From Trichoderma breve (Eukaryota > Ascomycota > Sordariomycetes > Hypocreales > Hypocreaceae), in NCBI RefSeq assembly GCF_028502605.1, contig NC_079235.1, positions 62,001 to 126,000 on the forward strand: a DNA stretch of 64,000 bases. The letters are read 5' to 3'. The notes beneath the pieces were generated by a model. The model worked only from the letters and a program-made list of their open reading frames with translations, ran no database searches and was not told the origin of the DNA. The translations under genes were made by a program, and so were the position numbers. Below are positions 8,964-54,708 of the stretch, piece after piece; positions within the stretch are counted from its first letter, which is position 1, and every line of letters starts with the position of its first letter.

Positions 8964-9601
8964 CGGCGGCGCCCCCGCCTAAACCGATCAGCGGCCAGAA
9001 AGATAAGATAGGTAGCTCAGATTAGTAGATGAGTTATGTAAGAGGGCTATGGCTATTACGGACTAACACACGCGTTGGAGGCTATCTGCGTACTAAATTG
9101 CTGTGGGTGTGTTGTTGATACGATCCGAAAGTCCACCTACTTAAACCCGCGGTGGCCGGCGGCCGAGTTGCGCCGGCGGCGGGAGGCACTTACATCAAAA
9201 GTGTCTGTTCCATATATGCACTTGGATGTACTCACTCGTCGCCTTCTCCCTACCACTCACTCTGTTCAACTTTGATATCGCCTGGCCGGCGCGGTCATCA
9301 TTATCGCACACTTACTCGGCCCATCATGAGGGAGCTGCAATGGCATTCCTTGATGGGGCGCTCGGCTCCTCGAATTCTTGAGACAATTTGCACCCAGTGG
9401 TGGTTTATCTATTATTATAAGCAGGGCCTTTCCATCCAAGCGACCTCGCTGCCACCAGTCTTCATTCTTCCTTGTCCAACCTTAGAACAGGGTGTATCTT
9501 CCAATATCTTTTCTTCCTCAATCCGGATCTCATGAAGACATTTCCTTGCATCGACACATCCTTAATACAGAGCGCAATTCTGGTATAATTGGCCTGAAAA
9601 A
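8964..9601. promoter_or_regulatory. Divergent promoter with GATA-factor sites
   Basis: Shared upstream region of the Dal81-like regulator (minus) and urea amidolyase (plus). HGATAR matches, the consensus of AreA/NIT2-type nitrogen regulators, lie at 9001-9006 (AGATAA) and 9006-9011 (AGATAG), overlapping by one base. Two more are on the minus strand at 9301-9306 (CGATAA) and 9405-9410 (AGATAA). A TATTATTATAA stretch near 9410-9420 could serve as a TATA element. Single GATA sites are common by chance; the overlapping pair and the gene content make nitrogen control plausible. Confidence 0.5.
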
Positions 9602-12600: not shown

Positions 12601-15094
12601 GCCCGAATCCCTACGCGTGGATACCTGGATTGATGAGGGCACTCACGTCACGACGCTCTACGACAGTATGATTGCCAAGCTCATTGCCGTGGGATCGGAC
12701 CGTCGCGAGGCTCTAGAGCGACTTGCAGACGGCTTGAATAACACGGTTGTTGAGGGCGTCCAGACAAATCTCGACTATCTGCGGCAAATTGTGGCATCGG
12801 AATTATTCTCTTCGGGAAACTTTCATACCAAGTCACTGGACTCATTTCAGTTCATCTCTTCCACCTTTGAGGTGATTGAGTGCGATGGAAGTGTGTCCGT
12901 ACAAGACTATCCTGGCAGAACTGGTTACTGGAGCGTTGGAATCCCACCCAGCGGCCCAGCTGATAGTCTTTCTTTTCGCCTCGCCAACCGACTTGTGGGC
13001 AACGACGACGATGCTGCAGGGCTTGAGTGTACGCTACACGGACCTCGTCTGAGATTCCATCGTGATGCAGTGATTGCCGTCACCGGCGGTGAAACACTCT
13101 TGCTCATCGATGAAAAGCCCGCCCCTCTGAGCACGACTTTGCGCATTCAAGCCGGACAAACAGTGCACGTGGGTGCTATCACAGCCGGCTACCATGTCTA
13201 CATTGCCATTGGTGGTGGTATCCAAGTTCCGTCCGTTATGGGTAGCAGATCAACCTTTGAACTGGCCAAAATGGGAGGCTATAAGGGTCGTTCGCTTCGT
13301 CCACGAGACATTGTGCCCATAGGTACTTCCCAAACCAAGACAATCAGATTACTGTCCTGTCCTGTAATATCAATGCCAAAGCAGGTTGGCGGTAAGAGCT
13401 GGAGGATTCGTGTGCTCCCTGGACCACACGGAGCGCCCGACTACTTCACCCATAATGGCCTCGTAAAACTATTCTCCAGTATATGGAAGGTACACCACAA
13501 CAGCAACCGTCTTGGCATCCGGCTTTCGGGGCCCAAGCCGGAATGGGCGCGCGATTCGGGAGGCGAGGCAGGGCTTCATCCGTCCAATATCCACGACAGC
13601 CCCTATTCTATTGGAAGTGTGAGCTTCACGGGTGACGAAGCTGTGATTCTCGGATGTGATGGGCCGAGCCTTGGAGGCTTTGTCGTTTTTAGCGTTATCA
13701 TCTCGGCGGATCAGTGGAAGATGGGGCAGCTGCGGCCAGGAGATTCCGTATCGTTTCAGCCCATCTCTTCTCAAGCAGCACTAAAGCTGGACAGCGAATT
13801 TCAGCGTGCAATATCGCAGATCAGGCTGCCATACGATCTCGGGATTGAAGAAACAGTTGGCACCCCCAATCTCGACGGCCTGGAAGTCGTTCTCGGAAAG
13901 ACTACGCACAATGGCCACGACTATGTTTGCCGCCAGGCTGGAGATAATGCACTGCTCATAGAGATCGATGGCGCCTCTGACTTTGATCTTGCGAGAAGTT
14001 TTGAGATCTTTGCATTCTGCGAGCGGCACCGTGAACAGCCTGTTCCTGGCGTCCAAGAACTCACTCCGGGCGTGGGTACTATTCACGTCATTTATGATCA
14101 TGGGCTACCGGCTGCTACGTTGATCGACCGGCTGTTTGCTCACCTAGCGACATGTCAATTAAGACGCAGCATCCCCTCAAGAACAGTCCGACTACCTCTC
14201 GCCTTTGATGATACTGTCTGCCGGGCTGCTGTAGAGCGCTATGCTTCTACAATCCGTGGCGAAGCTCCTTGGCTCCCAAGCAACATTGAGTTTTTGCAGG
14301 AGCTGAATGGTATTGAGGATATATCGGTGCTCTTGCACAGCGCAACTTTCCTCGTGGTCGGCCTCGGTGATGTCTTCCTTGGCTCTCCTTGCGCAGTGCC
14401 ACTCGATCCCCGTCACAGATTGTTTGGAACCAAGTATAATCCCTCACGCTCTTTCACGCCGCGTGGAGCGGTAGGCATCGGTGGGCAATACCTCTGTATT
14501 TATGCGACTGACTCGCCAGGCGGATACCAGCTCGTTGGAAGGACAAAGGATATATGGACATCACCGGAGACTCTACCATCAACTGTTAATCAGCCACCCT
14601 GGCTATTCCGCCAATTCGATCGCATAACCTTCTACCCGGTGACAGAAGAGGAGCTGGACAGCCAACCAGCGGATAAGTTGATCCAAATTGTCGAGGGCGA
14701 ACTGGAACTTGCATGGTACGAATCTCTATTAGCTGGCAATAAGGAGCTCATTGCGCAACACCGAGCGCAGCAAAGAGCATCGATGCTCAATGTGTCCTTC
14801 CTCGAAGATTTGTCAAAGCCGTACATTCCCAAATCCCGCACAGTGAAAGGATCTTCCAGGGGGGAAGACGGGAGTGCCTATGGCACACAGGTACCATCAG
14901 CGATACCGGGACGCTGCTTTGAATTGCATGTGCAGCCTGGACAGAAGATTACCAAGGGTCACCCACTGGTAAGCATTGAGTCGTGCAAGATGGAGGTTGT
15001 CGTCAGGAGCCCCCTTGATGGAGCGTGCAGTGCTGTGCTGGTTGAAGCCGGAGATAATGTCGACGCTGGAGATGTATTAGTGGTTATAGATTAA
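9602..15094 (+). CDS. DUR1,2: Urea amidolyase (urea carboxylase + allophanate hydrolase)
   Basis: Single 1830-aa exon, matching the usual length of about 1830 aa. It converts urea, ATP and bicarbonate to allophanate, then to ammonia and CO2. Domains in order: amidase-signature allophanate hydrolase (1-470) with Lys85 (FAAKDNIDAVG), Ser160 (SGGSSSGSA) and Ser184 (DTAGSGRVPAG); allophanate hydrolase C-terminal domain (about 500-625); biotin carboxylase (about 635-1085) with IANRGEIAVRIIKTLHRLG, ATP loop GGGGIGL, ERDCTLQRRHQK and EVNTRLQVEHPVTE; carboxyltransferase AHS2 then AHS1 (about 1090-1650); biotinyl carrier (about 1755-1830). The biotin lysine is K1796 in ESCKME, where MKM is usual, so Cys replaces Met before the lysine. 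The absence of introns in 5.5 kb contrasts with most neighbours. Probably cytosolic and nitrogen-regulated. Confidence 0.96.
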   Translation: MTRITQSREGQSPLLIHEWRAVQALGGGLQRLYSLVQRERSSNAATRAWISICTDEQLKEQWDRLHASHKQPTSLPLYGVPFAAKDNIDAVGFATTAACPAFATTPATEDASVVARLKAAGAILIGKTNLDQFATGLVGTRSPFGAVPNSFDPTRVSGGSSSGSAVVVARGAVPFSLGTDTAGSGRVPAGLNNIVGLKPTRGALSARGVVPACRTLDCVSIFALTADDAETVLSVAEGYDAQDSYSRIRPLNTTHTSDSGFGHKANERLQPVLAICANPPWFDRDDHSPSYEAVLDRARSLGWVLQPVDFTLLFELASLLYFGPWVAERYQAIRTFIQNIEPDQMDPVVRKIIKQAESFSATDAFEGEYKRQDLTRQIELAFAAYDGLLVPTSPTFPTLEQVTLSPVEENSRLGTYTNFVNFLDWSALSVPARFRHDGLPFGITLIANNWQEPHLLRWARAWLAGQTRTLGAVSARCLEPALSKPQEAHASEKMSENSISVAVVGAHLSGMPLNKDLVSRGAVLSRKTRTSNRYRLFALQSESGPSRPGLQRLQDAQAGAEIVVEVWELPETAYASFANTIPSPLSIGKIELRDHSWVSGFVCEPYGLDGAVDITHFSGWRSYISHLNQPEPASLGSVSTVLIANRGEIAVRIIKTLHRLGLKAVAIYSSVDANSPHGHLADLSYELKGQSVAETYLSSSQILTIAKSAGVDAIIPGYGFLAENADFATAVEEASITWVGPTPAQMVDLGLKHRARALAIESGVPVVPGSEGTLTSLDDALAEAQNVGYPLMLKSTAGGGGIGLRRCANEAELRDAFEGVQRQAVANFGDGAVFIERFVELARHIEIQIIGDGRGAVVTAGERDCTLQRRHQKIFEESPAIMVPEGQRAAMRAAAVRLAAHVRYRNVGTIEFIYDVNKDEFYFLEVNTRLQVEHPVTELVTGLDLVECMLQVAAGQEVELFSSPVNHLPTTGASIEVRLYAESPLEQFRPCAGTVSKLNWPESLRVDTWIDEGTHVTTLYDSMIAKLIAVGSDRREALERLADGLNNTVVEGVQTNLDYLRQIVASELFSSGNFHTKSLDSFQFISSTFEVIECDGSVSVQDYPGRTGYWSVGIPPSGPADSLSFRLANRLVGNDDDAAGLECTLHGPRLRFHRDAVIAVTGGETLLLIDEKPAPLSTTLRIQAGQTVHVGAITAGYHVYIAIGGGIQVPSVMGSRSTFELAKMGGYKGRSLRPRDIVPIGTSQTKTIRLLSCPVISMPKQVGGKSWRIRVLPGPHGAPDYFTHNGLVKLFSSIWKVHHNSNRLGIRLSGPKPEWARDSGGEAGLHPSNIHDSPYSIGSVSFTGDEAVILGCDGPSLGGFVVFSVIISADQWKMGQLRPGDSVSFQPISSQAALKLDSEFQRAISQIRLPYDLGIEETVGTPNLDGLEVVLGKTTHNGHDYVCRQAGDNALLIEIDGASDFDLARSFEIFAFCERHREQPVPGVQELTPGVGTIHVIYDHGLPAATLIDRLFAHLATCQLRRSIPSRTVRLPLAFDDTVCRAAVERYASTIRGEAPWLPSNIEFLQELNGIEDISVLLHSATFLVVGLGDVFLGSPCAVPLDPRHRLFGTKYNPSRSFTPRGAVGIGGQYLCIYATDSPGGYQLVGRTKDIWTSPETLPSTVNQPPWLFRQFDRITFYPVTEEELDSQPADKLIQIVEGELELAWYESLLAGNKELIAQHRAQQRASMLNVSFLEDLSKPYIPKSRTVKGSSRGEDGSAYGTQVPSAIPGRCFELHVQPGQKITKGHPLVSIESCKMEVVVRSPLDGACSAVLVEAGDNVDAGDVLVVID

Positions 15095-40362: not shown

Positions 40363-41226
40363 ATGGCGAATCATCACTTTGGCAATATGGACGGCAGGCC
40401 TGCCAACTATAAACCAGCGTATCGCCCGACAGTTGAGGAGCTGCTCAAGCGTAACAAGTACTACTCCTTAAACCATGTACTGTTCACTTGAATACTTGTC
40501 TGACATCGCGTATAGGGAGTATGTAGCCACTGTACATAAGCCTTGGCCTGACTTGGGCGAGTTGCTGGAATGGACTTCGCCGTCTACTATTGTCAGTGCG
40601 TACAATTTTCAGATTCAAATCCAGACGTTACACTTAAACTAATTCTCTGCAGTTGCCTGTTCTGATCCACGATGCGACCCTCAGCAATTTATGCAAGGGA
40701 GAAGGGGTGGTAAGCCTCACGATTGTTCTTAGTCTTCGCCATGCTTCCTCGATACATGATGCTGAGCTGCATATTTACAGAAATTGCTGCAATTAGAAAT
40801 CTAGGTGGTCAGGTCGAGATCAGCATCGTGGATATCGCTACTCTAGACAGCGAGTTCCAGTTCAAGGAGCTTGTGATCGTTCACCACACAAATTGTGGCG
40901 TCATAAGTTTGACGGCAGATGGAGTCTCTGAGTACTTGAAGGAGAATCTCCCCAGCGCCACTAAAGAAGAGCTGGCAGCATTTCCGATTGCTCTTTTCTC
41001 AAAGTAGGTTCCCTAATCTTCTGTCTTTGTTACTGACCCCTTCTGTTTGTCAATGTCTGTCGTGATAACATAAAAGCTGACTGTCGTGTATCATAGTATG
41101 GAAGAGGGAATAAGACATGACTTAGAAGTTGTGCGAAAATCACCTTATATTCGCAAAGAATTGAAAGAATCAGCCAGAGGATTTATTTTTGACATTAAAA
41201 CTGGGCTTTTGACAGAAGTGGTTTAA
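40363..41226 (+). CDS. Beta-class carbonic anhydrase
   Basis: The model is join(40363..40457,40516..40595,40653..40709,40781..41003,41097..41226), 194 aa in five short exons. Zinc ligands are intact: Cys61-x-Asp63-x-Arg65 (VIACSDPRC) and His113-x2-Cys116 (VHHTNCG). AAIRNLGGQ is the beta-strand motif between them. Its size fits the small soluble beta-CA subfamily. It interconverts CO2 and bicarbonate. There is no clear targeting peptide (MANHHFGNMDG), so it is probably cytosolic. It is convergent with the P450 gene. Whether it belongs to the metabolite cluster or merely adjoins it is unknown. Confidence 0.9.
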
Positions 41227-41524
41227 GATAGAACTCTACCCTGGCTTTATATAGGAGAATTAGACCGATAGAGTTCCTCTTCGTGCGTGACACCAGCACA
41301 CTTTCTGATGCTACTTTCAATAGCACTAGTTCGTCAACTTTCAACATAATTCCTTAGCTTACTTATATCCCAGTTGACACTGATAAGATTCCAGCAATGT
41401 TTAATTTGACGACATATAATCTGAATTTGGAAGCCGACTATCTCTACATTGAAGCTGACTATCTCTACATTTGAGCCGACATGCAATATTTTACATTGCT
41501 TTTCCTCTTTTCACAACCGAAAGC
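41227..41524. repeat. 3' region with 21-bp tandem repeat
   Basis: Between convergent stops. A 21-bp unit at 41430-41450 is repeated at 41451-41471 with one mismatch, followed by the start of a third copy. Otherwise AT-rich 3' sequence. Confidence 0.6.
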
Positions 41525-43224
41525 TTATAGATTTACTCTCTTCAATCTGACCCAAAGTGGTAGCTTTGTCATCGAATGGTATACCTTCATAGGCATCATT
41601 TGACCACTCAAACCCCATTGCCGAATCACCGCCTCATGGTCGTTTCTGTCAAGCTCAATATCGAAATTCCACAATATTGTGGCTGCAATGAGTCTCATCT
41701 CAAGATATGCTAGGTTCTTCCCAATGCATACCCTAGGTCCTGTTCCGAATGGTAGCGATGCATTCAGGTGGTCATCCTTGAACTCTGCATCCTCTCCTAG
41801 CCACCTCTCTGGTTTGAAGGTATCGGGATAACTAAAGTTGACAGACGAGTGTGTCGATACCCATGGAGGTACGGCCACTGTGGTTCCTGCAGGAACATAA
41901 TATCCGGCAATGTTAGCGCCACCTGAAGGGACTACACGCTGCTGACTTGCAGGTGATGGTGGGAATAGACGCAGAGCTTCGTTCAACGTAGCCTCGAGGT
42001 ACGCTAATTTTCTAACCTTGTCCCAATTAATATCATCGTTGGCCGTAAAAGCGTTTCTAATTTCCGCTGTAAGTCGCTTATATACACCGGGGTGAGTGCA
42101 GATGTAGTATGTCCACCCGACTAGAGCCGTAGCCGTTGTGTCAGTCCCAGCACTAATAAACAAGGCCATGTTCAACTGAATTTCAGTTTTGGATAACAGG
42201 CTTTTGGATTCGTTGTTCAAAATGTGGTACATGAAGTCCGTGTGCTCTCTATTAGGGTCTTGCAGGCGACGAACTGTTTTCTCGCAGGAATTGTTCAGAT
42301 GGATCGATCGCCATGAGGCAGCCTTCGCAGGGACCAGAAGCCATGTCATGAAACGCTCAAGCCACGTGCCGACACCAGATATTCGGCGTATGCCCTGTGT
42401 CCAAGTAGCCGCTACGAAAACGTTGATGACAGACGTTGACCATTCCGTAGCTGAAGCCTGATCTAAGCATCCAAAAGGCTCTGCGAAGCACAAGTCACCC
42501 ATTACGTCAAATGCAAGGTATGTGTCTGTGATCGTTGTCAGCGGATACGGCAAACGTATAATGATATAATATGCGCATTCATACACCAGTCTGAGACATT
42601 CACTGCCTGCTTCTCAGATGCCCCTTTCTCAAGCACGGATACGAGTTTCTGAACATGGATTTTAAGAATATCTTCCAGTTTGGCCAATGCGCTATTGGTG
42701 AACAGGTATCCCAAAGCCTTGCGTTGCCGAGTATGTTCTTTGTTCAGTGCGAGGCTCACGCCAGTCTCTCCATTGACGTTCCCTACGGCCCCGAGAAATA
42801 TAGGACTCTTCTCCATGAGAAGGCCGCCTTTCTTCACGATCTCAGGTCAGTAAGAGATTACAGTGTCGAGCTTGAAGCACTTACGCGAAACCCATAGATC
42901 TCTTCTCGAGCCTCAGTTGTAATAAAACTCAGCTCGTTGGGAGAAACTCGCACGACCAAACCATATTTTTCATGCAGAGACCTGTAGTAAAGGTGCTGAT
43001 CTCCCTTGACAAGAGCTATTGCAGCAGGCAGTTCTGACAGGCTGTTTAACCAAGGACCAGGTACTGAACGTAGCGGGTGAAAAATTCGGTTCTGTAGAAT
43101 GCGAATAACAAGACCAATGATGAACTGCACAGAATAAGCAAAGGTTGCGGGGTTGGTCAAGGTTACTCACTAGAACAGAAAATGTATAGGTGACCGAGGT
43201 CACAGAGAGCATTTGAATCAGCAT
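41525..43224 (-). CDS. Cytochrome P450 monooxygenase, CYP65-like
   Basis: The model is complement(join(41525..42525,42585..42831,42885..43124,43171..43224)), 513 aa. The first exon encodes the start of a membrane anchor. Signatures: proline hinge HPLRSVPGPW, WYTYLAFDVMGDL, I-helix oxygen-activation motif AGTDTT, ExxR in NEALRLFPPSP, PERW, and heme ligand Cys in FGTGPRVCIGKNLA. The layout and wording recall the CYP65 group (isotrichodermin C-15 hydroxylase-like), common in secondary-metabolite clusters. It would act at the ER membrane with NADPH-P450 reductase. It is divergent from the methyltransferase gene across about 720 bp. Substrate unknown. Confidence 0.92.
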
Positions 43225-43945
43225 GATGGAAACGAGGTGAGACTAAGTGTCTCTCTCAAGGCTGTTCTCAATTTGTTACTGATCGCGCCCTAGGAACACG
43301 ATTTAAAAATTGAGATGCTTAAGGCGTAGAGAATAACGTCATTGTATGGCCAAATTTTTTACGCTCGCACGATTGCCCCGAGATTCATAAGTGCGGCTAC
43401 TGAACCTTTCACTATTCAACTAAGTAAGTATTTAGGGTAACCAGAGTAAGAGAATATAAATTGTCAGGTTTCCAGGCGGTTACTCCCTCATTTCTACTTG
43501 CGTACAGCAATTCTCCCAGTAGTGGTGGGGAATTGTGTGTCCCCTTGTCGTATGGCGCTAGAAGCGTGCAAGCATGGTACAGTCGCATTGCACGAAAAAA
43601 TAGAAGAAGGAGAAAAAGGGAGAAAACCAGCTCAAAATAGCTCTCTTTGTGGGTTGTGATCTACTTCCGATGCGGATACAACCACACCCCGCAGGTGGAT
43701 GCTATTGCTGCACCAGATGGGGTACGCTCTCACACCCTTGTAGGATTTAGGTTGCGTGGTTTTGTTAGTGGGCGTCTGGAATGATGATGTGTCTCAGCGT
43801 GGAGCTTGTCACAGTTCTGGTTGCCGCGCCTATGAGCTTTATAATATGGTGCAAATACTCATGTTATAACTGAGATAATGTTCCAAATCATCTCTTTGTT
43901 TCTGGCAGCTTAACCCTAAGATTTACACTGGGATCAATATTGAAA
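43225..43945. promoter_or_regulatory. Divergent promoter of P450 and methyltransferase
   Basis: About 720 bp between two genes transcribed away from each other, so they are probably co-regulated. Purine-rich and AT-rich stretches. No specific binding site could be assigned. Confidence 0.35.
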
Positions 43946-44725
43946 ATGGGGGATACGGAGGAGCTGGCAACGGAATACACCCGGGTTAGCAACACCCAGT
44001 ACGGCACCGGGCTGTTTCTCCTCGAAAGACTTAATGTTGTCCCAGGCATGAGGGTTCTCGATGTCGGGTGCGGACCTGGAAATCTCACAGCTCATATAGC
44101 GCAGATTGTCGGGGAGAACGGCAGCGTTGTGGGCATTGATCCTAGCACGGAACGCATTTCGATTGCACAGAAGATCCAGAAGTCAAATCTATCATTCTTC
44201 GAAGGCCAAGCCGAAGATCTATCGCAGTTTCCTACGGAGAGTTTTGATGCAGTCTATGTGAACTCGACACTGCATTGGGTACAAGACCAGCCTGCAGCAT
44301 TGAAGGAATTTGGTCGTCTGCTCAGACCAGGAGGACTGCTTGGAATCTCAGGCGGATCAGGCGATACGCTCAGCGCACAAGAGAAGATCAAAGCCGAGGT
44401 GCTGTCCAGAGAACCATACCGAAAGTATCCAGAAGAGAGCCCACCCAAGTTTCTCAAGCAGCGCGAGCTTGAAAAACTTTTGGACGATGCCGGGTTCCCA
44501 GAGAGAAGTATTGTCGTCAACAAGATCACAAAGTCAACCAAGGATGCCGATGAAATGATTGACTGGTTGGATGCAAGCTCATCCGGAAAGACGTATGGTG
44601 GTATTCCTCTGGAGCTTCGGCCACGTGCGAGGGAGGAAATGAAGACGGAATGGAACAAACTTCTCGTGGAAGATGGAATCCACATGGATATCGATCTCTT
44701 GGTCACTGTGGCAGTTAAAGCCTAA
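43946..44725 (+). CDS. Class I SAM-dependent methyltransferase
   Basis: 259 aa, single exon, starting at the first in-frame ATG (MGDTEELATEY). The SAM-binding motif I is VLDVGCGPGNL (residues about 37-47), followed by the acidic ribose ligand region VVGIDPS, AEDLSQFP, and STLHWVQDQPAALKEFGRLLRPGG. The pattern resembles the trans-aconitate/SAM methyltransferase group (Methyltransf_11/25). The C-terminal half is an alpha-helical cap. The small-molecule acceptor is unknown; the neighbours suggest tailoring of a metabolite. A relative that transfers an aminobutyrate group rather than methyl cannot be excluded but has no direct support. Confidence 0.88.
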   Translation: MGDTEELATEYTRVSNTQYGTGLFLLERLNVVPGMRVLDVGCGPGNLTAHIAQIVGENGSVVGIDPSTERISIAQKIQKSNLSFFEGQAEDLSQFPTESFDAVYVNSTLHWVQDQPAALKEFGRLLRPGGLLGISGGSGDTLSAQEKIKAEVLSREPYRKYPEESPPKFLKQRELEKLLDDAGFPERSIVVNKITKSTKDADEMIDWLDASSSGKTYGGIPLELRPRAREEMKTEWNKLLVEDGIHMDIDLLVTVAVKA

Positions 44726-45124
44726 GCGGGGTGGTGGTGCTACACTGCACTGCACTGTACTGCGCTAGGATTTGTCCCATAGAATTGAGCTGTGTTTATC
44801 ACTACTAGATCCCAGTACCGCTTGTTACGTTTCTCCTTTTATGTTGGTTCATGTAGGTATTAGCCATGCCAGGCCACTCTGTGCTGCATAAGCGATGTCA
44901 CTGTGGTCGTGACTGGGAGTGGGCATTCAGTACACTATCTGTGGCACGACATAGGCGGATGTCATTTACCGCCAGAGGTCTAACCTTTACTAACATGGTT
45001 CCCGGTGAGTGATATTCTTGTTACTTACGAAGAGATTTTACACAGGCTGTTTTAAGTGAGACATAGTTACTCCGGAGCTAAGCTATCTGCTGAATTTTGA
45101 GACCGTGTTGCAGTGGAGGATAAA
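44726..45124. other. Intergenic
   Basis: About 400 bp: the methyltransferase 3' region (with a short CACTGCACTG repeat at about 44741-44760) and the promoter of the transporter. No gene seen. Confidence 0.5.
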
Positions 45125-46817
45125 ATGTCACCATGGCGCACTCCAACATTGCCGTCGCAAGACATAGAACAAATCGATAAAAAAATCATAACCAATTCCG
45201 AATCAATGGGAGCTACATACCCTGTAAATTCTTCAACAAGTTCAAGTTCGAAGAATGTCAATCAACAGGTTGAATCATGCACGTCGCTCTCAGTTTGGTG
45301 GGACGAGCCAGAAGAGCAAGATCGCGAAAACCCTATGAACTGGTCTGCGACGAAAAAATGGGCCAACATTCTGACGATTTCCGTCATCAGTTTCCTGGTG
45401 TAAGTGTGAGACCCTCCAATGGCCAGACCATTCGAGGCACGGCTCGAAGCATTGGCTAATTCTCAGCAGGCCACTCGTGTCATCGGTAGTCGCGCCAGCA
45501 GTAGAGCTGATATTGGTGGATTTCCACTCCAGCTCGACAATATTTCCAACCTTTGTGTTGTCGATATTTGTGCTAGGCTTCGCTGTCGGACCACTACTTC
45601 TTCCTTCATTGAGCGAGCTGTATGGCCGTGTCATTGTCTACAACGTCACGAATGTGCTCTTCGTCGTGTTCACCATCTTGTGTGCCGTCTCACACAATGA
45701 AGCGATGCTCCTTGGCTTTCGCTTTCTATCTGGGTTCGCAGGTGTGGCCACAATATCGATCGGCCCGGCGAGCATTGCAGACATTATGCCTCGGGAGAAA
45801 AGAGGAAAGGCTGTGTCACTCTGGGCTGTAGGCACCGTGATTGGCCCAATGGTAGGCCCCATCATTGGTGGTTATGTTACAGAGGTTCTCGGTTGGAGAT
45901 GGATCTTCTGGATCATCTCAATTATAGTAAGCTTAAGCCTGCTAACTTAATAAAAAAATCGTCACGTTAACCATCGTTCATAGGCCGGCCTCGTCACAGT
46001 TGTCGCTCTAGCCATTTTAAGAGAGACATACCCTCCAGTGCTACTCGAAAGGAAGGCAAGCCGACTCAGGAGAGAGACTGGGAACGCCAACTACCGGTCG
46101 AGGCTCGCCTCCGACTTAGGCCTCCAGGAGCTTGTCATACGAAGCATCATGCGACCCTCCAAAATGCTACTCCTTTGTCCAATTGTTACGGCTAGCTGCA
46201 TCTACATCTGTGTGTTGTACAGCATCATCTACATATTCTTCTCAACATTCTCAATTATATTTAAAGAGGCTTACGACTTTTCTACTTTTGAATCCGGGCT
46301 AGTGTTTATAGCCTGTGGCATTGGGACTTTGTCAGGGCTTGCTTACCTGGGATACTTCAGCGACAAGGCATTAGAGAAACGGGCACGCGCTGGAAGGATG
46401 ATTACGCCGGAGGACCGGCTACCCTTCCTAGTTACAGTACCTGGAGCCTTAAGCTTTTCACTTGGGATATTTGTGTATGGCTGGGGAGTGGAAAAACATG
46501 TTTATTGGGCCGTTCCTCAAGTTGGAACGGCCATGACAGGTTTCGGTTACATTCTAATATTTACAGCTGTCCAAACCTATCTCATCGACGCATTCGAGGA
46601 TCACTCTGCTAGTGTTAATGGGGCTAATGCGGCGCTCAGGGGTCTTGCCGGGGCTCTTATTCCTCTCAGCGGCCTGGACTTGTACGAGGCACTGGGATGG
46701 GGATGGGGGAACTCCCTACTGGCTTTCATCGCACTTGCTCTTGCACCACTTCTCTGGATCTTGGATGTGTATGGTGAGAGGATTCGGAAAACACAGCTAT
46801 TCAAGTTAAAGCTCTAA
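45125..46817 (+). CDS. MFS multidrug/metabolite exporter (DHA1 type)
   Basis: The model is join(45125..45399,45470..45926,45984..46817), 521 aa. A soluble N terminus of about 80 residues ends in WWDEPEEQDRENPMNWS, the hallmark leading into helix 1 in fungal polyamine/fluconazole-type DHA1 exporters. ELYGRV lies between helices 2 and 3, IGPASIADIMPREKRGKA between 4 and 5, GPMVGPIIGGYVTEVLGWRWIFW spans helix 5, and about twelve helices are present. It is probably in the plasma membrane, exporting the cluster product or protecting against it. The first intron has a clear CTAAT branch site and restores the helix 1 frame. Confidence 0.92.
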
Positions 46818-47031
46818 CGCCTGAGAACGAGGGCCATTTAATGATAGACAAGAAAACACGTAGTAAATTGACTCAAACATGTATTGTAATGCGTTATCTA
46901 TCTGACAAAATAAACAGTTTGACCACTCCAACCGTAACAACACAGGTTGCTTATGGATGTGGTCAGCGATCCGATCCATCTCCAAGTAGCTATCATCCAA
47001 TATGAACTCTACTTTTCTCTAGCTTCGCCAG

Positions 47032-48117
47032 TTATAATCGGCTGAGAATAAAGTTGTCTGGTTGAGCCGTGAATCTTGCAATTAGCTCTCGCCGGGAGAT
47101 CTCTTCCAGATGAAGCTTCCGAAGGCTTCTCCCAGACTCGAAGTAGTCGACACCAGTAGTCATTTGAGCAAGAACGATAATGGCCTTGATGGGTGACGCA
47201 TCTATGCCAAGCTTCTCAGCAAGGCTGTGCCAGCAAACAAGCAGATCAGGAACGTCCTCTGAGATATTTCGGTTTTGAAGGTCAGATGGAGCCTTTAGTC
47301 CCTTGTGTGGCCCTGAATTCCTTGCCAAATCCACTAGGTCCAAAAAATCGTGGCCGTAGCACTCGTTGGATACTGTCAACGCACTTTTCATATTGTGACC
47401 AAGTGCCTTGCCAATCTGAATCCTCACTTGATCGACCACAGTCATGGCCTTGGCAACGGAGCTTGTCAGGCCATCTCGATATAAGAAAAAGTCGCCACCA
47501 GTGTTTTCGATGCGACCCGCGTTCATCAGCATCATCAATGGATGAAACACGCCGTTCACATTTAACAGGCAAACTTCGAGGACACTGCTGCACCAGCAAA
47601 GCTCGACTGGCATAATCTCTTGTACCGCATCGTATACCGCTTGACTTAGAGGACTTTGAAGTGCTGCAATAAAGATGGAATTCTTTTTTCCCAGAATCGT
47701 CACTACATCTTTTTCCATCCGGCAAGAATATGGAGACAGATTGGTCTCTAGGACGCATCCAATCTCAATATCAGCAACGAGAGAGAACAAGTTGCCCGGT
47801 ATGCAGATAATGGTGTGATGTTGTAGAGGAAATCTTCTCAGTTCCTGCAGAATTGTGTCGTGTCCGGTAGATGGAACCGTAATGATGATAATCGTGGAGA
47901 ATTCTATGATATCACCCATATCCGAGGTGATGCATACGGGCATAGAACCCTCAATCTTTCCCCGTGCTGTCAATAGGCCTGTGTCCATGACCTCGTTGAC
48001 ATATCGAAAATGGTCTGGGTGTGAATAGACCAGTGCATCTATCCCGCGACTTTGGAGATCCGCCACGAGGGCGAAGCCGGATGGACCAGCACCGATGATG
48101 GACACTTTTCGTTGCAT
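47032..48117 (-). CDS. NAD(P)-dependent opine dehydrogenase-like enzyme
   Basis: Single exon, 361 aa. The N-terminal Rossmann domain has KVSIIGAGPSGFALVADL (GxGxxG). The C-terminal half resembles the octopine/nopaline dehydrogenase helical domain, with NVNGVFHP supplying the conserved Asn and His region and GKALGHNM following. Opine dehydrogenases reductively join an alpha-keto acid to an amino group to make N-carboxyalkyl amino acids; bacterial relatives make staphylopine-type metallophores. Here it sits between an exporter and an acyltransferase, divergent from the latter, with P450 and methyltransferase genes nearby. A more general ketopantoate-reductase-like role is the alternative. No targeting signal seen. 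Confidence 0.8.
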   Translation of the reverse strand: MQRKVSIIGAGPSGFALVADLQSRGIDALVYSHPDHFRYVNEVMDTGLLTARGKIEGSMPVCITSDMGDIIEFSTIIIITVPSTGHDTILQELRRFPLQHHTIICIPGNLFSLVADIEIGCVLETNLSPYSCRMEKDVVTILGKKNSIFIAALQSPLSQAVYDAVQEIMPVELCWCSSVLEVCLLNVNGVFHPLMMLMNAGRIENTGGDFFLYRDGLTSSVAKAMTVVDQVRIQIGKALGHNMKSALTVSNECYGHDFLDLVDLARNSGPHKGLKAPSDLQNRNISEDVPDLLVCWHSLAEKLGIDASPIKAIIVLAQMTTGVDYFESGRSLRKLHLEEISRRELIARFTAQPDNFILSRL

Positions 48118-49134
48118 TGCGGCAGTGTCTTATCCGTATCCGAGATTGTGATTGGGTGTGTCTGAACCAGTTATTGATTCAATGTGATTCATATAGGTCC
48201 AATACAGTATGATTACCTTAGAACGGCACCTTGAACGGAAACAATGACTTTACATATGTAAGCTGCTACGCTTTGAACATCATCCATGATCGCCCACTGC
48301 TTTTGTCGTAGAGACAGTCGACATGGGGCTTGGGCATTCACGGCTACTCAGCTGCGCAGGTTTTTTGATACCCCCTGGTTGCTGGAATGTGTGACTTAGA
48401 TCTGTCGCGAGGGAGTGCACGAGATTCCACGATTCATGGTGTATATTCACTCCGTAATTCTAGACCATTCCCATTCCATACGCGGCAGTCAACTCACTCT
48501 CCTAACCCTGTTGGCGAAAGTTGTACTCGGAGTGGAGTGGCAGGAATAGGCTGAGCAAGTTTGCGCGCATATGAAAGGTCGCGACTTCAATCTCTTTCCT
48601 GGCATGGACTCCCTACTATGCAAGCGTCTGTCACATCTGTGGCCCCATCCACATATGCATATAATCTAGCTAACTAGTCTAGTCCCTTCATGGGTGCAGG
48701 CCTGGATCTTCTCTTACAAACACGCCCCTTGGTGTTTAACGTTGCGCTTGGGATAGTCGCGCTCGTTTTCGAAGATCAATTGATGGTCTTTTGTAATATC
48801 ATCCTTCTTAGTAAATTCGCCGGTCCCCAGCCATTCATGTTTTTGTACGCGGTCCTCCAATGGGCGTGTGTAACACCTGCAGGTCTGTTAACATGTCTGA
48901 ATTAATTACCCCGTATATTCCACTGAATCTAGTTCATGAATTCTTACGAGGCATCAAAACCAGACGTACATATCCAAGTCACTGGTGTCACCGCAGTCAT
49001 ATTGTCCTTTCATCAGCACGCAGTAAGAGGGCAAACTGATTATACGGAAGATAATTAATGGCGCTTACGCAAAGACTTGCTTCTCCATAACCGCTGCTAT
49101 CAATTACCAACACTAAATTTTCTCACTGAGAGAA
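48118..49134. promoter_or_regulatory. Divergent promoter of opine dehydrogenase-like and acyltransferase genes
   Basis: About 1 kb between two genes transcribed away from each other. No convincing reading frame. The AC-rich stretch just before 49135 looks like a fungal 5' leader. Co-regulation of the two genes is plausible. Confidence 0.4.
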
Positions 49135-50505
49135 ATGGACTTTTGCCTAGACATATTTGGACAGCAGCCAAGACTCAACATCCATACCCAAATATGTCTA
49201 TGCTTTGCGATGCCCGATGGTGTTGCTCAGTCCACCATCGTGACTACACTAGAATCTGGCCTTCGGCGGCTAACGGCCAACTTTCCATGGGTTGCAGGCC
49301 AGGTCGTCGTTGAAGGTAATTGCGCCGGAAACTCTGGGGTTTTTAAGATCAAGGAGCTGCAGGAAATCCCCTACTTGGCAGTGAAAGATCTCAGAATGGA
49401 CGCCTCAGCTCCAAGCATGATGGAACTAAGAGAAGCCAACTTCCCAATGAGAATGTTGAACGAATCCGTTATTGCGCCTCGCAGTACCTTTCCCGCAGCC
49501 GATGCTGTCAACGGACCCGACCAAGGCTCGCCCGTGTTTCTCCTACAGGCAAATTTTATCGTCGGCGGCTTGGTACTCACGTTCCTTGGTCAACATCAGA
49601 CCATGGACATTATGGGGCAAGGACAGATTATGCATCTCCTCTCGAAGGCCTGTCATGATGAGTCTTTTACAGAGGACGAGCTGTCTTCCGGCAATCTCCA
49701 ACGTCAAAATCTCATCCCTATTCTTGATAATTACGAGCGTGGCCCCGAGCTTGCTCGTCATTTAGCTGCCACTGCACCTGGTCCATCTCGCCATGCTCTC
49801 GATAAGGATGAAAGAGAGCCAACTCAGATTCTCTGGACAAGTTTTACCCTTCATCCCACATCGTTGGCAGCCCTAAAGTCCATTGCTGTCAAGACTCTCC
49901 CAAGTGGTTCCCGCTACGTATCTACTGATGACGCGTTGAGCGCATTTATCTGGCAGAGCATCATGCGCGCCCGTGCCCATCGCTTGCCGCCCAACAGAGA
50001 CACGACCTTTGCGCGAGCTATAGACGTCCGTTCGTATGTTGATGTGCCGGCGACGTACACAGGCATCGTGCAGAACATGACGTACGCGACGTATACGCTA
50101 CAAGAGCTTGTCGCATTGCCGCTGGGCGAAATAGCATCCAGGCTGCGAGCCGCTTTGGAACCTAATACCACGATCCTCCCTTTCCACACGCGTGCCTTGG
50201 CTACCTACTTGCATAGCCAAACTGACAAGTCACATGTCTCGCCTGCCTCAGCATTGGACTTTTTGGTTGACGTGATAGTAAGTTCGTGGGCCAAAACGAA
50301 CACCTATGACTTGGATTTCAATTTAGGACTAGGCAAGCCAGAGGCTGTTCGCCGGCCATGGTTTACGCCGTTGCAGAGTTTTGTGTATTTCATGCCTCGA
50401 AAGGGTGACGGCGAGATCTCTGTAGCAGTGTGCCTTGAAAAAGAGGATATGGAAAGGCTGAAGGCGGATAAAAGATTTACCACGTACGCAAGGCACGATG
50501 GATGA
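49135..50505 (+). CDS. Trichothecene 3-O-acetyltransferase-like acyltransferase
   Basis: Single exon, 456 aa, the usual length for this BAHD-like fungal family. The N terminus MDFCLDIFGQQP and ANFPWVAGQVV match the family opening. The catalytic HxxxD is His-Gln-Thr-Met-Asp in GQHQTMDIMGQG. The C-terminal structural motif (DFGxG-type) reads DFNLGLGKPEAVRRPW. Relatives use acetyl-CoA or other acyl-CoA to acylate hydroxyl or amino groups, in biosynthesis or self-protection. The acceptor here is unknown; similarity does not imply trichothecene production, and no terpene synthase is present. Divergent from the opine dehydrogenase-like gene. Confidence 0.9.
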   Translation: MDFCLDIFGQQPRLNIHTQICLCFAMPDGVAQSTIVTTLESGLRRLTANFPWVAGQVVVEGNCAGNSGVFKIKELQEIPYLAVKDLRMDASAPSMMELREANFPMRMLNESVIAPRSTFPAADAVNGPDQGSPVFLLQANFIVGGLVLTFLGQHQTMDIMGQGQIMHLLSKACHDESFTEDELSSGNLQRQNLIPILDNYERGPELARHLAATAPGPSRHALDKDEREPTQILWTSFTLHPTSLAALKSIAVKTLPSGSRYVSTDDALSAFIWQSIMRARAHRLPPNRDTTFARAIDVRSYVDVPATYTGIVQNMTYATYTLQELVALPLGEIASRLRAALEPNTTILPFHTRALATYLHSQTDKSHVSPASALDFLVDVIVSSWAKTNTYDLDFNLGLGKPEAVRRPWFTPLQSFVYFMPRKGDGEISVAVCLEKEDMERLKADKRFTTYARHDG

Positions 50506-50841
50506 ATCAAGCAGGAAAGGAGATGAACTTTAAGGAACAGTGGCATACATCTCATTATATCCCATTGATCACAGTGTTTTACTATATATATTCAAAATAC
50601 ATAATTCGTGCAGTTCAAATCGTGCTATGATACCATGGTAGATCAAAATCAATGATAGTTTGCTATATCTGCAGTTCAAGTCGAATCATTCGCAGCATGA
50701 CACTTAGACACTGATGTGCGATGATTCCCCCAGGTTGTGGACGTACTCCACTTCGAGTTTATGAGACTGCCTGCACTTGTCCAACAAGAGAGCACCATTC
50801 ATTATACATTCGCCCGTCTTCAAGTAAATTGAATCAAGGGT
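50506..50841. other. Intergenic between convergent genes
   Basis: About 335 bp separating the acyltransferase stop from the copper transporter stop. AT-rich, nothing recognised. Confidence 0.5.
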
Positions 50842-51440
50842 TCAATGGCCCCCAGCACTGCCTGTTAAATGACTGCAGAGCACACTGCCCAGAAAAACAC
50901 CGCCAAGTACCGAAAGAAAATAGCCAGTATTCATTGTCATAACTGCCACCATACTAGAACAAAGTCAGCAGGCTGGTTAAACTGTCATCTCACGGGGATA
51001 TTTCAGACTAACAGTAGATAGCTCACTCCCGCAATCACTGTATCAAGTGCTCCTGACAGGATAGCCTCGCTAGCTCTCCAAGGTCTTGGCGTCGCCTTGG
51101 TCTCGATTATGTCTGGCTGAAGTAGACCGCCACTACGCCTCCGCTTGACGACGGCCACCACCTTGTATAAGTTGAATCGCAATGCCAGCAACATACGGAA
51201 CACGACAGCAAAAGCAATAAGAAAGATGCATGCTCCTGCGTACTGCCCGGTCGTGTTGGGCGTGAAAGCCGATGACCAAAGAGGTGTGCTTGTTGAAGTG
51301 AAGAACGCCATGATCATGGACTCCATGTTCATCGTCATGTTGGATGATGACATATCCATTGGGCCGTCTGTCGAAGAAGGCATGGCCATGGCGGAGGTAG
51401 CGCCCATTGGCATGTCCATTGACGGTGATGCTGAGTCCAT
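50842..51440 (-). CDS. Ctr-family copper transporter
   Basis: The model is complement(join(50842..50953,51013..51440)), 179 aa. The N terminus is rich in Met and MxM motifs (DMPMG, SMAMP, MTMNMESMIM), the extracellular Cu(I)-collecting region. Helix 1 begins AGACIFLIAFAVVF. The intron splits the conserved second helix; once joined it reads MVAVMTMNTGYFLSVLGG, with the selectivity motif MxxxM and the packing motif GxxxG. It functions as a trimer importing Cu(I) at the plasma membrane, normally after reduction by a metalloreductase such as the one encoded divergently next door. It is probably induced by copper shortage. Confidence 0.93.
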
Positions 51441-52479
51441 GGTGGTGATTGTTGTGTTTTTGCGCCGGGTTCCGCGTTACGGCCAGGGCAAGCACAAATT
51501 GTTGGAATAAAGTAAAATCTCAGTGGCAGAGACAATTTGAGTGGCTCACCATGAGTAGGAACAAAATAGAAAGTAACTTCGTCCGTCTCGCAACGATCGT
51601 TGAGCAGGGTATAGGAACATGAGCACGCCGTCGGGCCAGACCATCGGAATAAGAGTCACATGAAAGACGAAGATGATAACACACCAACTTCGCAGAGAAA
51701 GAAACAACTCTGTGTGTCTATGAAAACGCTCAGACTACGCTACTGTAAGCCGTATCAGCTTGTTGGGATCGGTCATAGGTCGCGTATCCTTACCTACCTG
51801 CGTGAGACAGTTGGACAAAGAATCCATACATTCAATCTTTCGATGCAGCAACGTTTCTCAGACAACATGGGCTAGGAAACTCACCAGTAGGTATCTGACC
51901 ACTAGGACAAGGAAGCCGATCGAAAATACGTGCGCAAACTTGCTCAAACAGAGTCATCGCGCTACTGCAAGTGTGACCCCAGCTACAGCGGAAGGATGTT
52001 TAAAATCCATGCCATGTGCTTCTGCATGATTCTGGGCGAATGAGCTGCGATCTTGCCCCTGTCCGGGTCCGTTGTTGGCTTCTTCAGTCCCATATGGGGG
52101 ATCTAGACACGCATGAATCGCCATTTGTGACACCGGCGTGGGGGCCACAACCCTTCACGACGACATCAGTCAGAGGAGTACACACCTACAGGGACGAAGC
52201 ACAAAGCGATGCAACAGGTCATCAGCTAAGCTCAGCATCCCATTGGTGTACACATAATGTACCTTGTGTGTTATGGGCAGGCGCAAACTCGTACTGCCTT
52301 TAGACAAGGTTCTAGGGCGGCACAGTGATAGATGTATCCAGCAGAGTGCTTGAGCAGCGGCGGCCCATTTCACTCATCCTCTCTTCACATCAGCATCGCA
52401 CACAAATGAACCCAATGTTGTTTTCTGAAGTGAAATAGAAACCAAAGAGTTGCTGATTCGCCTTTGAAAAGCATTTACC
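51441..52479. promoter_or_regulatory. Divergent promoter of copper transporter and metalloreductase
   Basis: About 1 kb shared upstream region. At 51931-51938 the minus strand reads TTTGCGCA, an exact match to the Mac1-type copper response element TTTGC(T/G)CA. At 51939-51946 the plus strand reads CTTGCTCA, one mismatch, so the two face each other back to back. This is a candidate copper-responsive site; the consensus comes from yeast and may not carry over. Confidence 0.4.
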
Positions 52480-54708
52480 ATGTCCGCCGCCTGGCTTACG
52501 CCGCCCATCACACTGACGGGAAGTCGCGAGTTTACTTGCGACAGCTTTGGCTTCACACAGGAGCAGTGCGATTACTATCAGCAACGTTGGCATTTCTGGT
52601 AAGTAAAACCAACTCTAACAGTAACTGAGATACAACTGCTCGACGTCAATACTAAATAACTATCTCACAAGGTTCATCGCCGACCATGTCTATGCGTTGT
52701 CGACAATCGCCTTCCTATTGAGCGTCCTCGGCATCTTCGTCATTGGCAACATTGTCTCACAGTTGTTGGGACAGCGGACATGGCGCGGCTCTTCACCTTG
52801 GCAGAGAGTGATCGCAGTAACACGATACTTATCTTACCGCGGCTTCCACATCCAGACGTTGCGATGGAACTCGGCCCCCTTGGGGCTTCTGCTTCTTGCG
52901 GCTGTAGGAACTATCTTTTTCTTCTGTAAGTCGACTGCGAGGTTGGTTGGATGAGGCAGACATTGGTATTGACAAATTGACTTTTCAGGCATGGATCTGA
53001 TTCCCCAGCCCTATTACTGGCCAAGTTTGGATTTCGGCGGCTCTCCACCATTAGGCACAAGATCGGGATGGATGGCTCTGGCATGCATGCCTTTTGTCTT
53101 GTAGGTCTCTCAGATAACCCGACCCAGCAAGCACTCGTCAAAATACTAACGTTTATTCCTCCTCTTTTGCAGCGCGACAGCGACCAAGACGAACTGGATC
53201 ACACTCCTCACGGGTGTCTCGCACGAGAAGCTCCAAGTGTTCCATCGATGGATATCTTACGCCTTTTTCCTCCTCGCACTTATGCATACATTTCCCTTTA
53301 TCGTCTTTCACATAAGATTTCACGACATGGTCATGCAGTTTGAGATGGGCATGATATTTTACTGGACCGGCATCGTAGCCATCATTTTGCAGGCTTGGCT
53401 TACTTTTGCGTCTCACAGTGTGATTCGGTAGGTGGTGGAACAGAATACAACACCAAGACTACACATCTGACACATTACGCAGAAACTTGGGTTATGAATT
53501 TTTCAAAGCAACCCATTTACTCGCCGCCGCAGTATTCGTCTTGATATTCTTCTGGCATTGCGATTACACCTTGACTTCTTGGTAAGGGCAAGCTGCAGCT
53601 ATTAGTATCCCTCCGCCCCAGACACTGATGGTTCCACAGGCATTACTTCATTGCGACAGCAGCTGTGTACGTCCCTTGCTATGTTTATCCATGGGTGCGG
53701 ACTTGTTTCGAGTACGGTACGCGATCAAAGGCTCAGGTCACCGTTGAGGACGGCGGCTTCACACGCATTTCAATCCCGGCGAACTTTGCGTGGATCCCTG
53801 GTCAGCACTGCTTCCTCCGCTTCACCGGCTTTGGGTTCTTCCAATCCTTTTCGGCGCATCCATTCACAATTTGCTCTATGCCATCCAATGTAACAGAAGA
53901 AAAATCGGAGCTCATCTTCTACATTCGCCATCAGAGCGGCTTAACGGCACGTCTGTACCAGTCTGCTCTGAAAACCTCGGGTGCCTCCATTCCTGTACTT
54001 GTCGATGGTCCTTATGGAGGAATTAACCTGCAATCATATGCTCACAGCGACCATCTTCTTGTCATTGCAGGAGGATCAGGTGCGGGATGGACCTTGCCAT
54101 TCATTGAGCAGTTCATCATGTGTCAATCAAAGACAGTTGATGAAGAGCGTGGCCAAGCAGCAAACCTTGATGGCATAACAGGAAAAACGGGAGGTATTGA
54201 GGGCAGAATTCACGGCCCATTCACTCTCCGCGTCGTAGTGGCAATCCGAGACGCCACTACTCGTTCGTGGTACATAAGAACTGTCAAGAAGCTGCTATCT
54301 CGATACGAGAGACTGGAGTCAATTTCCAATATTCGTATCCAATTACACTTAACTGGGGAGGCTGCACAAGAGGTAGATCTGGCTGATAAAACTCTTGACC
54401 TTCCAGCGGATTTAAGTAAGTCTGCCTCATTGCCAGAGAACATCATTGCCCAAGATGGCAGAACAGAGACTACGGCATCGGCACTGTTCGACGAGCAACT
54501 CGACGGACGGCCTCAACTACCGCTGATTGTCCAAGAAGAGGTAGCAATAACAGCAAATGGAGGGGAGTCACTTGCTGTCTTTGTTTGCGGGCCGGTTACT
54601 ATGCAAGATGATGTTCGAAATGCTGTTGCGGATGCAAACCTAAATATCCTCAAAGGCTCTAGGTCTGGAGGAGTATATTTGCATTCTGAGCATTTCTCTT
54701 GGGCATAA
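52480..54708 (+). CDS. Ferric/cupric reductase transmembrane protein
   Basis: The model is join(52480..52598,52672..52925,52989..53100,53173..53427,53483..53581,53640..54708), 635 aa in six exons. The membrane half carries the paired heme histidines of the FRE/NOX superfamily: HRWISYAFFLLALMHTFP and HLLAAAVFVLIFFWH. The cytosolic half has the FAD site HPFTICSMP, the NADPH glycine motif IAGGSGAG and the closing FVCGPVTMQDDVR. It moves electrons from NADPH through FAD and two hemes to extracellular Fe(III) or Cu(II). Its divergence from a Ctr transporter suggests Cu(II) reduction before uptake. The N terminus is short and Cys-containing (TCDSFGFTQEQCDYYQ). Confidence 0.93.

What the first reader, a model, noticed from the sequence alone, without database searches (positions are those of the whole stretch)
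40363..54708. Opine-dehydrogenase-centred metabolite cluster beside a copper/iron uptake pair
A P450, SAM methyltransferase, MFS exporter, opine-dehydrogenase-like enzyme and acyltransferase lie together with divergent shared promoters, and no PKS, NRPS, terpene synthase or DMAT backbone gene is present. Directly next is a Ctr copper importer divergent from a metalloreductase. In bacteria, opine dehydrogenases build staphylopine-type metallophores with an exporter. I infer that this locus may make an opine-type small molecule, possibly metal-binding. The link to metals rests on adjacency only.
Basis: partly seen in the sequence, partly recalled or inferred. Interest (0 to 1): 0.75.

Follow-up and report, generated by a model that had tools for sequence, protein, structure and literature searches.

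The report
Copper-wired opine gene cluster in Trichoderma
A soil fungus carries a seven-gene cluster, already published as a "plant communication" cluster, that looks like a maker of an amino-acid-based small molecule; its control DNA suggests that copper hunger switches it on, which would make it a possible copper-scavenging system.

Summary
Seven genes (P450, SAM methyltransferase, MFS transporter, opine dehydrogenase, TRI101-like acyltransferase, Ctr, metalloreductase) lie at 41525-54708 in a Trichoderma genome, with three divergent pairs. The locus is not new: it is the PCA (Plant Communication Associated) cluster of T. harzianum (PMC12855858, 2026). That paper and two on Pseudogymnoascus destructans already print an opine-metallophore idea. 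What I add is regulatory. The paper's uncharacterised palindrome sits once in each of the Ctr/reductase and opine-dehydrogenase/acyltransferase promoters and reads as two inverted Mac1-type copper elements. Nearly the same 20-mer lies in the shared promoter of an unlinked Ctr/reductase pair (18/20) and upstream of another Ctr gene (16/20); 80 control segments peak at 14/20. The PCA study's medium, as printed, has no added copper, and an unlinked copper transporter and reductase rose with the cluster. So the metal link no longer rests on adjacency alone. Against: four other Ctr promoters score 11-15; the P450/methyltransferase and transporter promoters lack the element; Ctr/reductase pairs also occur without opine genes; the product is unknown. 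A staphylopine-type pathway is not supported. Most likely this is a copper-starvation-induced opine-type metallophore cluster.

The parts
41525..43212 (-). cytochrome P450 (pca7 equivalent), with introns
   Evidence: Pfam PF00067 5e-59 on the 3' exon; start read from sequence
43946..44725 (+). class I SAM-dependent methyltransferase (pca6 equivalent); top fold match is a carboxyl O-methyltransferase, S-methyltransferases score about as high
45125..46817 (+). MFS transporter, probably an exporter (pca5 equivalent)
   Evidence: PF07690 on two open frames; direction of transport inferred
47032..48117 (-). opine dehydrogenase (pca4 equivalent), PF02317; invariant His and Asp aligned with CENDH positions 202 and 297
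48552..48567 (.). palindromic element TGAGCAAGTTTGCGCG in the opine dehydrogenase/acyltransferase shared promoter (inverted pair of copper-response-like half-sites)
49135..50505 (+). TRI101-like acyltransferase (pca3 equivalent)
   Evidence: TRI-like_N 1e-65; trichothecene 3-O-acetyltransferase 2zba E 2e-135
50842..51440 (-). Ctr copper transporter (pca2 equivalent), two exons
   Evidence: PF04145; exon reading
51931..51946 (.). palindromic element TGCGCAAACTTGCTCA in the Ctr/reductase shared promoter
52480..54708 (+). FRE-type metalloreductase (pca1 equivalent), with introns
   Evidence: PF08030, PF08022; C-terminal part 52% identical to the reductase of an unlinked Ctr/reductase pair

Best explanation
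This is the PCA cluster of Trichoderma, and I read it as a copper-starvation-induced opine-type metallophore (chalkophore) cluster. Proposed working: when copper runs low, for example near a competing root, a Mac1-type copper-fist activator binds the inverted elements in the two divergent promoters at 51931 and 48552. It switches on Ctr and the metalloreductase together with the opine dehydrogenase and acyltransferase; P450, methyltransferase and transporter follow by a route not seen here. The opine dehydrogenase joins an amino acid to a 2-oxo acid by NAD(P)H-dependent reduction of the imine, giving a chelating secondary-amine dicarboxylate. Methyltransferase (perhaps on a carboxylate), P450 and acyltransferase trim it, and the MFS protein exports it. 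Bound Cu(II) is reduced at the surface by the metalloreductase and the Cu(I) enters through Ctr. Shown here: gene content, the two elements, their near-copies at two other Ctr promoters, the dehydrogenase fold and aligned catalytic residues, a Mac1-like gene. Inferred: binding by Mac1, copper control in this species, the product and its copper binding.
For: (1) Element GTTTGAGCAAGTTTGCGCAC (Ctr/reductase promoter): best ungapped match 17/20 in the opine-dehydrogenase/acyltransferase promoter, 18/20 in the unlinked paralogous reductase/Ctr promoter and 16/20 upstream of another Ctr; 80 control 1-kb segments peak at 14, reached by 2. (2) YGMGCAANNTTGCKCR: 5 places in 38.5 Mb, 2 of them these promoters; read backwards 0. 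(3) TTTGAGCAAGTT: 11 places; 3 in Ctr promoters, 1 about 1.0 kb upstream of a reductase start. (4) The half-sites (TTTGCGC(A/G) and CTTGCTCA) resemble TTTGCTCA of yeast/Candida and fit the F. oxysporum Mac1 ChIP consensus DHNTGCTCANNN in the TGCTCA half; there Mac1 drives two divergent ctr/fre pairs and an isocyanide (crm) cluster (PMC11563359, section 7). DHNTGCTCA: 8 in the 7 Ctr-bearing promoters, 3.0 expected, p 0.012. (5) Mac1-like gene: copper fist plus two CxCx4CxCxxCxxH repeats. (6) PCA paper: the seven genes induced, up to 1000-fold, near a soy root, with an unlinked copper transporter (30.8x) and reductase (21.2x); medium as printed lists Fe, Mn, Zn, Co, no Cu; pca1 and pca5 deletion strains did not colonise roots. 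(7) P. destructans CRC (reductase, MFS, opine dehydrogenase, SAM enzyme, P450): copper withholding raises transcripts, and 4 of 5 proteins were detected and raised, SAM enzyme >70x, opine dehydrogenase 20x. (8) Dehydrogenase model: CENDH 1bg6 TM 0.81; His/Asp aligned (their catalytic role recalled).
Against: Four of the 7 Ctr-bearing promoters lack a 16/20 match: 15, 13, 12 and 11. The P450/methyltransferase and transporter promoters have best matches of 14 and 11, at null level, and no TTGCTCA; the former has two TTGCACG, which fit the paper's loose half-site. The bare half-site TTGCTCA is not clearly enriched in the 7 promoters (5 found, 2.1 expected, p 0.058). Seven 2.5-kb blocks upstream of other reductases hold 4 TTGCTCA between them and no TGAGCAAGTTT. 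TTTGAGCAAGTT is not enriched genome-wide (11 against 17 for the reversed pattern) and 7 of its 11 places were not examined; TGAGCAAGTTTSC has 7 places, 3 of them discussed here, 4 whose genes were not examined. The PCA authors' genome screen tied the full motif to no other plant-regulated gene; the copy at the C4 pair departs from that motif at one base. Plant datasets exist in which pca genes were unchanged or down. No Pseudogymnoascus protein was named in the 120-row listings, so homology of CRC and PCA rests on family names. No metabolite has been isolated.
Confidence: 0.55

Rival explanations
1. Plant-signal cluster, the published main reading: the genes make or modify a compound that acts in talk between fungus and plant; the reductase makes reactive oxygen and the copper genes are secondary.
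For: Induction near soy roots without contact and failure of root colonisation in pca1 and pca5 deletion strains (PMC12855858).
Against: An unlinked copper transporter and reductase rise too; the medium as printed has no added copper; the element recurs at Ctr genes outside the cluster.
Confidence: 0.2
2. Two neighbours under one switch: a copper-uptake pair beside a biosynthetic or detoxifying set (P450, TRI101-like acyltransferase, transporter) whose product does not bind metal.
For: Divergent Ctr/reductase pairs exist twice elsewhere in the genome, where there is only one opine dehydrogenase; the acyltransferase is a strong TRI101 relative, a self-protection enzyme in Fusarium according to the PCA paper.
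Against: The opine-dehydrogenase promoter itself carries the element; the P. destructans cluster names the opine genes with a reductase but no Ctr and is copper-regulated.
Confidence: 0.15
3. An opine for nitrogen or carbon traffic: a simple opine made for the plant or as a nitrogen store.
For: Nitrate and nitrite reductase genes rise with the cluster; the PCA authors raise it.
Against: Does not explain the copper-type element or the copper genes or induction by copper withholding in P. destructans.
Confidence: 0.1

Closest known systems
PCA cluster of Trichoderma harzianum (PMC12855858)
   Same: The same seven families; the same palindrome in the two bidirectional promoters named there, pca1/pca2 and pca3/pca4
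   Different: Copper control through a Mac1-type element is proposed here; the paper has 0 occurrences of Mac1, chelat* or Pseudogymnoascus. The motif is counted here once per promoter; the paper's 'twice' may count both strands of a palindrome (inference)
Copper-responsive cluster (CRC) of Pseudogymnoascus destructans (PMC12113139, PMC13208438)
   Same: Reductase, MFS, opine dehydrogenase, SAM enzyme and P450; induced by copper withholding; opine metallophore proposed
   Different: No Ctr or acyltransferase among the five genes named; sequences not compared here
Bacterial opine metallophores (staphylopine, pseudopaline, yersinopine)
   Same: Opine dehydrogenase fold (TM 0.65-0.69), a SAM enzyme and a transporter
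   Different: No nicotianamine-synthase match; dehydrogenase nearer to CENDH; Ctr and reductase in place of a dedicated importer
Fungal isocyanide (crm) clusters under Mac1, F. oxysporum
   Same: A biosynthetic cluster wired to the copper-starvation activator
   Different: No isocyanide synthase match in the window; matches at three loci elsewhere in the genome
N-(1-D-carboxylethyl)-L-norvaline dehydrogenase, 1bg6
   Same: Best sequence (8.6e-38) and fold match (TM 0.81), His and Asp aligned
   Different: 26% identity in the fold alignment; substrates of the fungal enzyme unknown

Membership tests
PCA cluster (T. harzianum) | Seven gene families pca1-pca7 together in about 15 kb | tested here: met
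   sequences of the T. harzianum cluster as a whole were not aligned
PCA cluster (T. harzianum) | Palindrome YGHGSAADHTTSCDCR in the pca1/pca2 and pca3/pca4 promoters | tested here: met
   48552 and 51931, the only two places in the window
Mac1 copper-starvation regulon | Mac1-type elements in the promoters | tested here: inconclusive
   Present in two of the four cluster promoters, absent from the P450/methyltransferase and transporter promoters; binding not shown
Mac1 copper-starvation regulon | A Mac1 gene in the genome | tested here: met
   Copper fist plus two Cys-rich repeats at G000:C2:1216891; the naming as Mac1 is recalled knowledge
Mac1 copper-starvation regulon | Induction by low copper lost without Mac1 | not testable with these tools
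   No expression data for this species
Bacterial opine metallophore (staphylopine type) | Opine dehydrogenase of the staphylopine/pseudopaline type | tested here: not met
   PF02317; CENDH is nearest by sequence and fold, the metallophore dehydrogenases come after octopine dehydrogenase
Bacterial opine metallophore (staphylopine type) | Nicotianamine-synthase-like enzyme (CntL) | tested here: not met
   PF03059 0 matches in the genome, searched exon by exon; the SAM enzyme is UbiE/BioC/Tam-like
Bacterial opine metallophore (staphylopine type) | Exporter in the cluster | tested here: inconclusive
   An MFS gene is present; direction of transport not tested
Bacterial opine metallophore (staphylopine type) | A metal-binding opine product | not testable with these tools
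   No metabolite data
Isocyanide chalkophore cluster | Isocyanide synthase | tested here: not met
   The 8 PF05141 matches lie on C1, C2 and C6; none in the window on C4

The most novel reading that the evidence does not exclude
The published 'plant communication' cluster of Trichoderma is a copper-starvation regulon: its uncharacterised palindrome is a paired Mac1 element, the root acts by drawing down copper, and the cluster makes a fungal opine-type copper metallophore, built on a CENDH-like dehydrogenase and a class I methyltransferase instead of the bacterial nicotianamine-synthase-like route.
Probability: 0.45. Interest if true: 0.82.

Novelty: already known. Interest (0 to 1): 0.58.

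Why it matters
If right, a result reported as fungus-plant communication becomes, at least in part, a contest for copper, testable simply by adding copper to the plate. It would also join two sets of papers that do not mention each other's organism, and give fungi a further way to scavenge copper beside Ctr uptake, scavenging proteins and isocyanides. The linked dehydrogenase/methyltransferase pair is widespread in filamentous ascomycetes, so the chemistry would be common and still unnamed.

Tried and rejected
Staphylopine-type pathway: rejected for lack of a nicotianamine synthase match and because the SAM enzyme is an ordinary class I methyltransferase.

Hidden backbone gene: 26 of the 39 open frames of 150 aa or more were scanned; no PKS, NRPS or terpene synthase domain found. 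The other 13 frames and short exons were not scanned.

Bare half-site counts as proof: rejected, p 0.058 for TTGCTCA, 0.012 for DHNTGCTCA. Mainly the long element discriminates. The 20-mer was chosen from one of the promoters, so its own score of 20 is not evidence; the copies at the C4 pair and the C2 Ctr were seen while reading promoters, the one near the C3 reductase only in the genome search.

Corrections made on checking: three Ctr promoters began 94-263 bases too far upstream; one search repeats the scores with starts (scores unchanged at 15, 13, 12; DHNTGCTCA 8 instead of 9). The contig list typed for one search had one length doubled and one missing; one search repeats it (still 30).

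Finding the P. destructans protein: a Leotiomycete query named no Pseudogymnoascus protein among its 120 listed rows of 246; direct homology stays untested.

Carbonic-anhydrase-like reading of 40363-41006: suggested by eye, no Pfam match.

Which gene here equals the paper's unlinked reductase Triha1_76871 and its neighbour was not settled. Relatives name Trichoderma; the species was not established.
Full report
What is there. The window is part of a 38.5-Mb genome in 9 contigs. The best-named relatives of its opine dehydrogenase and methyltransferase are Trichoderma (T. compactum 92%, T. virens 83%; T. simmonsii and T. harzianum 95%). Seven genes fill 41525-54708 in the order P450, methyltransferase, MFS, opine dehydrogenase, acyltransferase, Ctr, metalloreductase, with three divergent pairs.

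It is published. PMC12855858 (seen: abstract, sections 8-14, part 1 of 15, section 17, passages) describes these seven families as the PCA cluster of T. harzianum: silent alone, induced up to 1000-fold near a soy root, pca1 and pca5 needed for root colonisation. Its Discussion already offers an opine metallophore as one possibility. PMC12113139 (passages and part 1 of section 18) and PMC13208438 (passages) describe a five-gene copper-responsive cluster in P. destructans with reductase, MFS, opine dehydrogenase, SAM enzyme and P450, induced by copper withholding, and propose an opine metallophore. So neither the locus nor the metallophore idea is new.

What I add. The PCA paper found a palindrome, YGHGSAADHTTSCDCR, in the pca1/pca2 and pca3/pca4 promoters and no match for it in JASPAR. 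In this window it occurs at exactly two places, 48552 and 51931, each seen on both strands. Each is an inverted pair of half-sites, TTGCTCA and TTGCGC(A/G). The yeast and Candida Mac1 site is TTTGCTCA and the F. oxysporum Mac1 ChIP consensus is DHNTGCTCANNN (PMC11563359, passages and section 7). YGMGCAANNTTGCKCR occurs at 5 places in the genome, 2 of them here, and 0 when read backwards. Read by eye, of the other three one falls in a mitochondrial-carrier-like frame, one just upstream of a Zn2Cys6-factor-like frame and one between two other long frames.

The element outside the cluster. The genome has Ctr matches at seven loci and three divergent Ctr/reductase pairs: this one, one at C4:402-405 kb (52% and 47% identical to the window's reductase part and Ctr) and one at C5:89-91 kb. 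The C4 pair's shared promoter carries GTTTGAGCAAGTTTCCCCAC, 18/20 to the window's element and about 0.4 kb before the Ctr start; the strongest Ctr match (C2:3388443) has a 16/20 match about 0.5 kb upstream; the opine-dehydrogenase promoter has 17/20. Control: 80 overlapping 1-kb segments of window 1-40500 peak at 14, reached by 2. The other four Ctr-bearing promoters score 15, 13, 12 and 11. Promoter bounds are approximate and the C5 pair's stretch is only 196 bases. Four pairs of the ten promoters share 13-mers from this element and one pair shares another 13-mer; 30 of 2000 random pairs of 1-kb window segments share any. TTTGAGCAAGTT occurs 11 times genome-wide (17 for the reversed pattern); three places are Ctr promoters and a fourth is about 1.0 kb upstream of a reductase start; the other seven were not looked at. 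TGAGCAAGTTTSC occurs 7 times (reversed 0): the two cluster promoters, the C4 pair and four others whose genes were not examined. Upstream blocks of seven other reductases show no such long element. The bare 7-mer is not significantly enriched, the ChIP consensus weakly. A Mac1-like regulator is present.

Re-reading the plant experiment. The trace solution printed in section 17 has iron, manganese, zinc and cobalt but no copper. An unlinked copper transporter and an unlinked reductase rose 30.8-fold and 21.2-fold with the cluster. Copper drawn down by the root would explain this without a specific plant signal. This is inference: peptone, agar and glucose carry some copper (recalled), nitrogen genes rose as well, and most other plant datasets showed no induction and one a fall.

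The chemistry. The dehydrogenase model (mean pLDDT 85.2, with weak stretches near 201-213) matches CENDH 1bg6 best (TM 0.81), then octopine dehydrogenase (0.70-0.76), then pseudopaline, staphylopine and yersinopine dehydrogenases (0.65-0.69). In the profile alignment CENDH residues H202 and D297 (positions counted by me, catalytic role recalled) meet an invariant His and Asp. The methyltransferase model (pLDDT 91.5) matches juvenile-hormone-acid methyltransferase first (TM 0.74-0.80), and trans-aconitate methyltransferase (0.72-0.75), both acting on carboxylates, but the S-methyltransferases TmtA and GtmA reach 0.76-0.77. Carboxyl methylation of the opine is therefore only a guess. The acyltransferase is a TRI101 relative. 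No nicotianamine synthase match was found in the genome.

How widespread. The listed top 120 relatives of the dehydrogenase (of 272) and of the methyltransferase (of 4628) share 30 exact contig lengths, 36 with the additional rows. The names include Sordariomycetes, Dothideomycetes, Leotiomycetes and lichen fungi (classes recalled); neighbouring locus tags such as TRIVIDRAFT_53537/53536 and PAC_17075/17077 agree. This fits the PCA paper's remark that pca4-pca6 may be the core chemistry; the MFS gene was not tested.

Literature limits. Library searches (listings; five papers opened for passages or sections beyond the PCA paper) showed no paper that calls the PCA motif a copper element or joins PCA with CRC. 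The PCA paper has 0 occurrences of Mac1, chelat* or Pseudogymnoascus, the two P. destructans papers 0 of Trichoderma. Most subscription journals and preprints are not covered.

Verdict. The metal reading is strengthened by a shared copper-type element, but the product and its metal remain unproven.

Noticed in passing
G000:C1:7198449, C2:416223, C6:498577: Isocyanide-synthase (PF05141) matches at three loci in the same genome: the family behind known fungal copper chalkophores, which may share the copper regulon.
   Followed up: no
G000:C3:810971-810986: A perfect inverted element TGAGCAACCTTGCTCA just upstream of a frame that by eye is a Zn2Cys6 transcription factor.
   Followed up: partly
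G000:C4:402379-405671: Paralogous divergent metalloreductase/Ctr pair about 290 kb from the cluster on the same contig, with a near-copy of its promoter element.
   Followed up: yes
window 9566-15094: 1842-aa open frame with urea amidolyase domains (allophanate hydrolase plus urea carboxylase), flanked on both sides by Zn2Cys6 factor frames.
   Followed up: no
window 40363-41006: Interrupted frames upstream of the P450 that by eye recall a small beta-carbonic anhydrase; no Pfam match in the last piece.
   Followed up: partly
listings: Close relatives of the opine dehydrogenase are listed from T. barbatum (83%) and T. chlorosporum (78%); if these lie outside the Harzianum clade (not checked) the cluster's range is wider than published.
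   Followed up: no
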